Shown: piece after piece, positions 37,017 to 39,539 of the stretch
Numbering within the stretch: position 1 is the first letter of the stretch
How the letters are laid out: every line of letters starts with the position of its first letter
From: Gymnogyps californianus
Lineage: Eukaryota; Chordata; Aves; Accipitriformes; Cathartidae
Length of the DNA: 64,000 bases
Reading direction: 5' to 3'
NCBI RefSeq assembly: GCF_018139145.2
Contig: NC_059473.1
Location: 66,260,707 to 66,324,706 of the forward strand
Translations under genes and position numbers: made by a program
Notes under the pieces: model-generated
Database searches by the model: none
The model's input: only the letters and a program-made list of their open reading frames with translations
Told to the model about the DNA's origin: nothing

Positions 37017-39539
37017 ATGAGTGTTAACCTGCTGTTGTCAATTACAGTTACTTCTCAGGACTTTTTGGATGAGTTGCAAATAAAAATACCTTTCTCCAAC
37101 ACAATGAGTGCCACCTCAGTCACGAGTTGTGCCTTGCCACCACCACTTGGGCCCGAACAAGAGGACCAAGAGTGCTCTGAGACACACATGTCTGTTTTGT
37201 GGTATGCAGGGCAGCTTGCAATTACTTATTATGATACAGAAGATTGCTCAGTCTACTTCATGCCTGACATACCTGATAATGAAGACCTCAAGCTACTGCA
37301 TAAAGTGATTGGGGAAGTTAATCCTCAATGCATAGTGACCAGTGCAAAACAGGACCAAAATATTGCCAAATTCCTCACCAACCTAACAGCTACTGCTGGT
37401 GATAAAGATATAGGAAAACCAGAAATTGTCCTGTTTCCTAACATAGATTTTGGCCTAGAAGTCAGCAAGCAACGGATCCTATCTAGGCAATTTCCATTTA
37501 TCCCATCTCATATGACTGCAACAGAGAAAATCCTCTACTTGTCCTCAGTCATCCCTTTTGAGAGCCCACTCATGATACGAGCCCTAGGGGGACTCCTTAA
37601 GTTCCTAGACAGGAGAAGGGTTGGAGTTGAGCTCGAAGAAAGCACTATTGCAGTTCCTATTCTGGCCTTTAAAAAGTTTGTGCTGTCAGATATTGTGAAT
37701 ATGGACCAAGACACTTACTGTGTCCTGCAGATATTTAAAAGTGACATCCATCCTTCTGTGTACAAGCTGTCCAGTGGATTAAAAGAAGGATTCAGTTTAT
37801 ACGGAATTTTAAACCGTTGCAGGTGCAAATGGGGAGAAAAACTGCTGAGGCTGTGGCTCACACGACCTACTCGGAACTTGACAGAGCTGAACAAACGGCT
37901 AGATGTTATCCACTTCTTCCTGCTGGCTCAGAACTATGAAACAGTCCTCACTCTTCAAGGTTGCCTCAAGAATATTAAAAATGTGCCTCTTATTCTGAAA
38001 AGAATGACTCTTTCCCACACAAAAGTTAGTGACTGGCAAGCACTCTATAAGACAGTGTACAGTGCAGTGTGCCTTAGAGACACATGTCGTTCTCTGCCCA
38101 ACACTATTGAACTCTTTCAGACTATTTCGCGTGTCTTCACTGATGATCTGCACTACATTGCTAGTCTAATCAGCAAAGTGGTGGACTTTGAAGGCAGCAT
38201 CTCAGAGAACCGCTTCACTGTTAGACCAAATGTGGACCCCACCATCGATGAGAAGAAACGGAAGCTGATGGGACTGTCAGACTTCCTTACAGAAGTGGCA
38301 CGAAAAGAACTGGAGACCTTGGACAATCATATTCCCTCCTGTTGTGTTATCTACATTCCTTTGATTGGGTTCCTTCTCTCCATTCCACGGCTACCAACTA
38401 TGGTGGATAAGAGTGACTTCGAAATCGAAGGCTTGGACTTCATGTTCTTGTCAGAGGATAAACTGCACTACAGAAGTGCTAGGACTAAGGAGCTAGACAG
38501 CCTGCTGGGTGACTTGCACTGTGAGATCAGAGACCAGGAAACACTTATTATGCACCAGCTGCAGACAAAGATCTTGGAGAAGTCTGAAGTGCTTAACAGT
38601 GTGATTGAGTATACTGCACACCTAGATGTGCTACTAGCTTTGGCAGTGATGGCCCGGGAGAATGCCTACTGCCGGCCATGCTTTACTCACCGCCATGGCT
38701 TCCACATCAAGGGTGGGAGACATCCACTCATGGAACTATGTGCAAAGACTTTTGTGGCCAATCCTGTGAACAGTGGCGAGGCTACCAGACGAATAAAGAT
38801 CATCACAGGGCCAAACTCATCTGGAAAGAGCGTCTACTTAAAGCAAGTAGGTCTTATAGTATTCATGGCTCTAATTGGCAGTTATGTCCCTGCAGCAGAG
38901 GCAGAGATTGGAGTAATTGATGGGATTTACACAAGAATCCACAGTAGGGAATCAGTTTCTGTAGGGCTGTCCACTTTCATGATTGATCTTAACCAGGTTG
39001 CCAAGGCAGTAAACAATGCCACAGAGAGGTCCTTGGTACTTATCGATGAGTTTGGTAAAGGGACCAACACACTGGATGGTCTGTCCCTTCTGGCTGCTGT
39101 CCTGAGGTACTGGATCAGTCAAGGAACACAGTGTCCACAGGTCTTTGTCTCCACTAATTTTCACAGTTTAATGCAGCTAGAACTCCTGCCTGACACACCT
39201 CTTCTGGAGTACCTGACCATGGAGACCCACCAAGACGGAGATGAGTTGATATTTTTCTATCAGATCAAACAGGGCGTGTCCACTGTTAGTCATGCTGCCA
39301 ACATTGCTGCACTAGCAGGAATGCCAGCCAAAATCATTGAAAGAGGAGTGGAAGTGTCAGAACTGATTCGCAGTGGAAAAGCTATCAAACGTATTGATCA
39401 TCCTTCAAAAGGAGATCGAATGGAAAAATGCAAGTCTGTTGTGGAAAAATTTCTTTGCCTAGACCTTGATGATCCCCATGTGGACTTAGAAGAGTTCATG
39501 CGTAAAGAAGTGCTGCCTTCTGCAGCCTCAGTCCTGTAA
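37017..39539 (+). CDS. MSH5: MSH5, intronless meiotic MutS homologue (probable functional retrogene)
   Basis: MSH5 pairs with MSH4 (MutS-gamma). The heterodimer forms a sliding clamp that stabilises recombination intermediates and promotes crossovers in meiosis; it does not repair mismatches. The frame is open for 840 codons and collinear with human MSH5 (834 residues) from about residue 55 onward. Examples are VLWYAGQLAITYYDT, ATEKILYLSSVIPFE, LNRCRCKWGEKLLRLW, LILKRMTLSHTKVSDWQALY and LHYRSARTKELDSLLGDLHC. As in other MSH5 proteins the mismatch-binding domain I is absent. The ATPase domain is complete: Walker A GPNSSGKS at 598-605, the STFM signature at 652-655 and Walker B LVLIDEFGKG with D677/E678. 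The C-terminus EVLPSAASVL matches human EVLPAATSIL. Mammalian MSH5 has many introns; here the coding region has none, and it lies antisense inside an AKAP7 intron. By homology the better start is the ATG at 37104 (811 residues), because the first 29 residues of the open frame look unlike MSH5. I have kept the full frame because an acceptor just before 37017 would make that ATG the first in the mRNA. Confidence 0.95.
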   Translation: MSVNLLLSITVTSQDFLDELQIKIPFSNTMSATSVTSCALPPPLGPEQEDQECSETHMSVLWYAGQLAITYYDTEDCSVYFMPDIPDNEDLKLLHKVIGEVNPQCIVTSAKQDQNIAKFLTNLTATAGDKDIGKPEIVLFPNIDFGLEVSKQRILSRQFPFIPSHMTATEKILYLSSVIPFESPLMIRALGGLLKFLDRRRVGVELEESTIAVPILAFKKFVLSDIVNMDQDTYCVLQIFKSDIHPSVYKLSSGLKEGFSLYGILNRCRCKWGEKLLRLWLTRPTRNLTELNKRLDVIHFFLLAQNYETVLTLQGCLKNIKNVPLILKRMTLSHTKVSDWQALYKTVYSAVCLRDTCRSLPNTIELFQTISRVFTDDLHYIASLISKVVDFEGSISENRFTVRPNVDPTIDEKKRKLMGLSDFLTEVARKELETLDNHIPSCCVIYIPLIGFLLSIPRLPTMVDKSDFEIEGLDFMFLSEDKLHYRSARTKELDSLLGDLHCEIRDQETLIMHQLQTKILEKSEVLNSVIEYTAHLDVLLALAVMARENAYCRPCFTHRHGFHIKGGRHPLMELCAKTFVANPVNSGEATRRIKIITGPNSSGKSVYLKQVGLIVFMALIGSYVPAAEAEIGVIDGIYTRIHSRESVSVGLSTFMIDLNQVAKAVNNATERSLVLIDEFGKGTNTLDGLSLLAAVLRYWISQGTQCPQVFVSTNFHSLMQLELLPDTPLLEYLTMETHQDGDELIFFYQIKQGVSTVSHAANIAALAGMPAKIIERGVEVSELIRSGKAIKRIDHPSKGDRMEKCKSVVEKFLCLDLDDPHVDLEEFMRKEVLPSAASVL

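What the first reader, a model, noticed from the sequence alone, without database searches (positions are those of the whole stretch)
37017..39539. Intact intronless MSH5 nested antisense in an AKAP7 intron
An uninterrupted frame of 811-840 codons encodes full-length MSH5 with all ATPase motifs and the conserved C-terminus. MSH5 is a multi-exon gene in the MHC class III region in mammals, so a single coding exon here points to retroposition. Lack of any frameshift or stop suggests purifying selection. It may be the only working MSH5 in this lineage or a second copy with a germline-specific role. Loss of the parental gene with replacement by the retrocopy would be a notable event for a core meiotic crossover factor.
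Basis: partly seen in the sequence, partly recalled or inferred. Interest (0 to 1): 0.88.

Follow-up and report, generated by a model that had tools for sequence, protein, structure and literature searches.

The report
Birds' meiosis gene MSH5 is a retrogene
In this bird the whole meiotic crossover gene MSH5 is written in one unbroken coding exon, backwards inside an intron of the gene AKAP7, and it is the only MSH5 found in the genome assembly; it likely arose when an mRNA copy was pasted there before modern birds split and then took over from the original many-exon gene, so bird crossing-over would depend on a copied gene.

Summary
Window 37017-39539 (+) is one open frame for full-length MSH5 (likely start 37104, 811 aa), antisense in an 11.4-kb AKAP7 intron. 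At the 184 columns that never vary among relatives (at least 100 of 120 rows present) it agrees every time. Human MSH5 has 26 exons, so a one-exon copy inside another gene points to retroposition (inferred). Two searches of the bird's own 1.24-Gb assembly found no second MSH5, only this locus and exons of paralogues. Listed bird MSH5 proteins are 87-98% identical to it. An upstream CpG island matches N-terminal extensions of four other birds' MSH5 records. The gene tree follows the species tree: an ordinary ortholog that moved, not an extra copy. Not shown: that the parent is truly lost (the class III control did not complete), dN/dS, expression, exact age, or that the parent lay in class III in reptiles. 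The kind (retrogene replacing its parent) is known; I found no report for MSH5. It bears on whether relocation rescues genes from decaying avian dot chromosomes.

The parts
37104..39539 (+). MSH5 coding region in one exon (811 aa plus stop)
   Evidence: 98% identical to Aptenodytes forsteri MSH5
37017..37103 (+). In-frame upstream extension (29 codons), more likely 5' leader; its last codons resemble a parrot (Pezoporus X1) N-terminus by eye
36001..36600 (+). CpG island (GC 0.63-0.77, CpG o/e 0.71-0.90), likely MSH5 promoter and first exon
   Evidence: N-terminal extensions of 4 bird MSH5 records match 36151-36379, each above the best of 30 shuffles; 3 of the 4 matches contain a stop here, so it would be non-coding leader in this bird
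36506..36511 (+). Candidate splice donor of the 5' exon (GACG|GTGAGT); candidate acceptor AGs end at 36989 and 37006
   Evidence: pattern only, untested
38808..38831 (+). Walker A GPNSSGKS
38964..38996 (+). MutS/ABC signature GLSTFMIDLNQ
39030..39071 (+). Walker B SLVLIDEFGKGTNT
39836..39865 (+). ATTAAA followed by an A-rich tract ending in 15 A, about 300 bases after the stop; possible polyadenylation site or poly(A) remnant, may be chance
   Evidence: no convincing target-site duplication
32617..43976 (-). AKAP7 intron that holds MSH5 (limits set by tblastn matches, so approximate)
43977..44093 (-). AKAP7 exon just upstream (AKAP7 sense) of the MSH5-bearing intron
   Evidence: tblastn with recalled human AKAP7, 72% identity, E 2.6e-12
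32467..32616 (-). AKAP7 exon just downstream of the MSH5-bearing intron
   Evidence: 74% identity, E 1.3e-18
56229..56405 (-). AKAP7 exon
61702..61848 (-). AKAP7 exon
8019..8072 (-). Likely first exon of the short AKAP7 (alpha) isoform, with its own CpG island at 7901-8550; so the MSH5 island is not that isoform's promoter
   Evidence: 15 of 18 residues identical to a recalled probe

Best explanation
One uninterrupted exon encodes complete MSH5 antisense inside an AKAP7 intron and is the only MSH5 found in this bird's assembly; it likely began as an mRNA copy of the many-exon MSH5 inserted before crown birds arose, which then replaced its parent. Shown: the intact frame, the nesting, no other MSH5 detected in the assembly, equal contig lengths for MSH5 and AKAP7 in palaeognath and neognath birds, a gene tree that follows the species tree, and a CpG island that matches N-terminal extensions of other birds' MSH5 records. 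Inferred: reverse transcription of a spliced mRNA and insertion into the intron; use of the CpG island as a new promoter with a spliced 5' leader; loss of the parent, which may have lain in the GC-rich class III block; and function in the germ line as partner of MSH4 (MutS-gamma) that stabilises recombination intermediates for crossovers (role recalled).
For: Intact 811-aa frame with motifs. Human gene: 26 exons over 25 kb in MHC class III (PMC3637681, passage). Own assembly: the window MSH5 query gives 6 matches and human MSH5 at E<=10 gives 8; only this locus is MSH5. The others read are MSH3-type (C30), MSH2-type (C3:17.85M) and MSH4-type (C8); a weak C3:17.65M hit (E 0.63, not read) is probably MSH6 (paralogue names from recalled motifs and places). 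Tree of 37 rows: 15 birds one clade, 100/100; turtles, alligator, squamates and mammals in expected places. MSH5 and AKAP7 contig lengths are equal in 7 of 8 birds with a length in both lists, including Apteryx rowi (472,068 bp) and Struthio, and in the turtle Carettochelys. Protein identity far above neutral expectation. 184 of 184 invariant columns kept. Extensions of owl, kakapo, budgerigar and Amazon records map to the CpG island.
Against: No target-site duplication and only an ambiguous A-tract, as an old event would leave but no positive mark either. Absence of the parent rests on an assembly that may lack the class III block: the CK2-beta family search found nothing in the bird or in the 14 controls, and the valyl-tRNA synthetase search did not complete (last try). 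Zebrafish msh5 is listed on chromosome 15, away from that fish's MHC block on 19 (PMC1309616, passage), so a class III home for the reptilian parent is inferred from mammals only. Contig lengths differ in Falco biarmicus, Alligator and Latimeria; Emydura MSH5 is on a 22.8-Mb contig; the bilby Macrotis shows equal lengths too, so sharing a chromosome is not specific. Lists are capped: 120 of 969, 120 of 669, 120 of 573.
Confidence: 0.85

Rival explanations
1. The retrocopy is a second, perhaps germline-specialised MSH5, while a multi-exon parent survives hidden on an unassembled GC-rich dot microchromosome.
For: Bird TNF and nine neighbours from the class III region lie in a displaced block, and TNF is very GC-rich and was long missed (PMC5913325, passages and section 7). 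CK2-beta was not detected in this assembly (but the controls also gave nothing).
Against: The 120 listed relatives reach down to 1200 bits, below full-length squamates (1440-1481), and hold no bird protein below 87% identity (120 of 969 hits listed, 7998 candidates scored). Human MSH5 at E<=10 found no extra MSH5 exons. The copy evolves as slowly as a sole essential gene would (inference).
Confidence: 0.1
2. MSH5 lost its introns at its own locus (recombination with cDNA) and the locus then moved by chromosome rearrangement.
For: Gene tree shows one orthologous lineage without an old duplication.
Against: The gene lies antisense inside the intron of an unrelated gene with exons on both sides, the usual outcome of retroposition; loss of some 25 introns plus a precise move needs two rare events.
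Confidence: 0.04
3. A recent processed pseudogene or misassembled transcript that happens to be unbroken.
For: None beyond the lack of introns.
Against: Bird MSH5 proteins 87-98% identical on chromosome-size contigs of many species; matching upstream island; invariant columns all kept; lies in a 128-Mb contig with AKAP7 around it.
Confidence: 0.01

Closest known systems
Mammalian MSH5 (MutS homolog 5, partner of MSH4)
   Same: Same protein: 535 of 810 aligned residues identical to human (66%), ATPase motifs kept
   Different: Human gene has 26 exons in MHC class III (PMC3637681, passage); here the coding region is one exon inside AKAP7 on contig C3
Orphan retrogenes (retrocopies that replaced a lost parental gene; class recalled, the term counted in the listing)
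   Same: Intron-free coding copy at a new site, under constraint, no parent found
   Different: Core meiotic gene; appears shared across birds and possibly older; the replaced copy is inferred, not seen
Relocated dot-chromosome genes of birds: TPPP2, PLEKHA4, CARMIL3, IRF9 (PMC12954441; abstract, passages, section 6 part 1 and section 9 part 1)
   Same: Gene expected in a GC-rich dot-chromosome block found at an unrelated place; the paper asks whether such moves save important genes; TPPP2 moved in ancestors of Archelosauria, a possible match in age
   Different: MSH5 is not named in the main text held, and no word there begins with 'retro'; here the mechanism is likely retroposition; that MSH5 left a dot-chromosome block is inferred

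Membership tests
MSH5 ortholog | MutS III and V domains, Walker A, signature and Walker B | tested here: met
MSH5 ortholog | Groups with MSH5 proteins, apart from MSH2, 3, 4, 6 | tested here: met
   The 120 best relatives are named MSH5 / MutS protein 5, or are hypothetical or unnamed; other MutS-type loci are separate in the genome and far less similar. No tree with MSH2-6 rows was built. Solved structures matched are MutS, MSH2, MSH3, MSH6 and MutS2 only.
MSH5 ortholog | Forms MutS-gamma with MSH4 and is needed for meiotic crossovers | not testable with these tools
   MSH4-type exons are present on C8
Retrogene | Introns of the parent absent | tested here: met
   One coding exon against 26 exons in human; gene structure in closer outgroups not seen
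Retrogene | New genomic site unrelated to the parent's | tested here: met
   Inside an AKAP7 intron, antisense; human gene in MHC class III
Retrogene | Poly(A) remnant and target-site duplication | tested here: inconclusive
   A-tract 39840-39865 but only a 10-base AT-rich match upstream
Retrogene | Purifying selection on the copy | tested here: met
   Indirect: protein identity and intactness across birds against a neutral simulation; dN/dS not computed
Orphan retrogene (parent lost) | No parental gene in the same genome | tested here: inconclusive
   None found in the assembly; class III control unanswered (last try)

The most novel reading that the evidence does not exclude
MSH5 escaped a decaying, GC-rich MHC class III/dot-chromosome block through an mRNA copy that landed in AKAP7 in the common ancestor of birds and turtles; the parent then died, so crossing-over in all birds, and probably crocodilians and turtles, has run on a retrogene for some 250 million years: relocation as rescue of an essential gene.
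Probability: 0.4. Interest if true: 0.72.

Novelty: new member of a known kind. Interest (0 to 1): 0.55.

Why it matters
MSH5 is a core pro-crossover factor, and retrocopies are rare in birds (78 in chicken; PMC3136929, passages). Retrocopy surveys look for a multi-exon parent in the same genome, so a retrogene that lost its parent would be invisible to them (inference from the methods passages). If right, birds rely on a retrogene for a central meiotic step, and MSH5 becomes a test of the open question in PMC12954441 (section 9 part 1): whether relocation off dot chromosomes saves important genes. It would also allow a clean comparison of MSH5 regulation from a new promoter.

Tried and rejected
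Fresh pseudogene, assembly artefact and AKAP7 alternative promoter were considered and rejected. AlphaFold2 on a 24-row alignment gave a poor model (mean pLDDT 52.5) and was not used. One scan each of genome contigs and viral contigs for relatives' DNA found none, so dN/dS could not be computed. The CK2-beta family search gave nothing in the bird and nothing in the 14 controls: uninformative. Rfam: 0 matches. Sigma-70 promoter-like and terminator-like scans gave chance numbers (5 against 5.9, 6 against 4.7). Squamate state stays open: a Phrynocephalus protein record lacks residues from 705 on, just where a sheep isoform has an insertion at 704, which hints at introns in squamates; one coincidence only. 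Paper searches (listings capped, for example 20 of 33, 20 of 22, 20 of 923) showed no title, abstract start or term count of a paper calling avian MSH5 a retrogene; most subscription journals are not held. Passages of PMC4502378 and PMC12220609 were seen and added nothing on MSH5.

Full report
What is there. The window carries one open frame at 37017-39539 on the + strand, 840 codons. The in-frame ATG at 37104 gives 811 aa, the length recorded for many bird MSH5 proteins, so I take 37104 as the likely start. Pfam reports MutS domains III and V above cut-off and IV just below. In an alignment with 120 relatives, 184 columns with at least 100 rows present never vary among the relatives, and the window agrees at 184 of 184; Walker A, signature and Walker B are complete.

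Setting. AKAP7 runs on the - strand. With recalled human AKAP7 as probe I found exons at 61702-61848, 56229-56405, 43977-44093 and 32467-32616 in the window, and in neighbouring sequence of the same assembly the last exon and two upstream matches, one of them weak (E 0.89). MSH5 lies antisense in the intron at about 32617-43976. The likely first exon of the short AKAP7 isoform is at 8019-8072 with its own CpG island, so the island at 36001-36600 is not that promoter. N-terminal extensions of four bird MSH5 records (owl P0027, kakapo P0033, budgerigar P0037, Amazon parrot P0038) match 36151-36379 in this island, each with a score above the best of 30 shuffles (30.8 v 21.6, 23.1 v 18.5, 22.7 v 21.9, 24.3 v 21.2 bits). 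Two margins are thin, the four use three reading frames and three of them cross a stop in this bird, but all four fall in the same 229 bases. Two further extensions in the same call (turtle P0043, unnamed P0056) do not match. A spliced 5' exon with its promoter in the island is therefore likely, though untested. 'Intronless' is right for the coding region only.

Is it the only MSH5? The window's assembly (G000, 1.24 Gb, 542 contigs) was searched with this protein (6 matches) and with human MSH5 at E<=10 (8 matches). Besides this locus the matches read are paralogues: C30 (MSH3-type), C3:17.85 Mb (MSH2-type), C8:37.05 Mb (MSH4-type); a weak C3:17.65 Mb hit (E 0.63) was not read and is probably MSH6. 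These names rest on recalled motifs and positions. A multi-exon MSH5 should have given hits stronger than the MSH4 exons that were found (inference). Limit: bird class III genes can sit in GC-rich sequence that assemblies miss (PMC5913325, passages and section 7). My controls for that block failed: CK2-beta gave no match in the bird or in the controls, and valyl-tRNA synthetase did not complete (last try). In the protein database 969 relatives were found and 120 listed (7998 candidates scored); birds among them sit at 87-98% identity and none looks like a separate parental lineage. One bird, Pithys, has two MSH5-like proteins, but they are sisters in the tree (100/100).

Selection. Identity to ostrich is 757 of 811 (93.3%), to quail 739 of 809, to pigeon 777 of 811. 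Mutating the real frame without selection at 0.1 changes per site leaves 81% identity, and 1 of 200 runs has no stop; at 0.2, 67% and 0 of 200. Bird neutral divergence over such depths is larger than 0.1 (recalled). So purifying selection looks strong, but this is not dN/dS: no DNA of another bird was available.

Age. In a tree of 37 MSH5 proteins, 15 bird rows (the window included) form one clade (100/100) and turtles, alligator, squamates and mammals fall in species order; the root is a midpoint and some bird forks are open. This fits one gene handed down, not an old duplicate pair. Contig lengths for MSH5 and AKAP7 (120 of 669 and 120 of 573 hits listed) are equal in Aptenodytes, Phaethornis, Pithys, Excalfactoria, Alca, Struthio and Apteryx rowi (a 472-kb scaffold), 7 of 8 birds comparable; Falco biarmicus differs, but its MSH5 row stands for a 39-member, three-contig cluster. 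Carettochelys matches too (212,173,194). Against that: Alligator differs (22.5 v 486.6 Mb, probably different assemblies), Latimeria differs, Emydura MSH5 is on a 22.8-Mb contig, and the bilby matches although a mammal, so sharing a chromosome is weak evidence by itself. I conclude that the move predates crown birds (strong) and may predate the bird-turtle split (moderate). Squamates are open.

Mechanism. Human MSH5 has 26 exons in MHC class III (PMC3637681, passage). A copy with no coding intron, antisense inside an unrelated gene, is best explained by reverse transcription of mRNA. No target-site duplication survives, and the A-tract at 39840-39865 may be chance. Afterwards the copy would have used the CpG island as promoter and taken over, with MSH4 as partner. 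Where the parent lay in early reptiles is unknown: zebrafish msh5 is listed on chromosome 15, not with the MHC block on 19 (PMC1309616, passage).

Comparison with the known. Retrogenes that replace parents are a known kind (recalled). A 2026 study of avian dot chromosomes (PMC12954441; abstract, passages, section 6 part 1, section 9 part 1) reports heavy gene loss and four relocated genes and asks whether relocation is an 'emergency' measure to save genes; its main text does not name MSH5. PMC3136929 (passages) counts only 78 retrocopies in chicken and, like the VGP survey (PMC13320880, passages), works from an existing parent, so it would miss this case (inference). My searches listed no paper describing MSH5 as a retrogene in birds (capped listings); papers outside the held library may.

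Verdict. Real, conserved and likely the working MSH5 of birds. Ordinary in what it encodes, unusual in how it got there.

Noticed in passing
P0042 (Pithys albifrons, contig 127451547) against P0029 (contig 121308221): The antbird Pithys has two MSH5-like proteins on different contigs; the one not on the AKAP7 contig has a five-fold longer end branch (0.052 v 0.0098), possibly a young duplicate.
   Followed up: partly
Residues 724-750, window about 39273-39353: Six bird records held from UniRef only (P0027, P0033, P0034, P0036, P0037, P0038) lack the same 27 residues: a shared annotation artefact or an in-frame 81-base splice.
   Followed up: partly
P0040, Chelonoidis MSH5 C-terminus: The giant tortoise MSH5 record runs 12 residues past the usual end, as if its stop codon had changed.
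   Followed up: no
Mammalian rows of the tree: The mammal stem branch (0.30) is far longer than the sauropsid stem branches; MSH5 evolved faster in mammals than in birds.
   Followed up: no
window 30508-30663: 58-base unit tandemly repeated 2.7 times in the AKAP7 intron downstream of the MSH5-bearing one.
   Followed up: no
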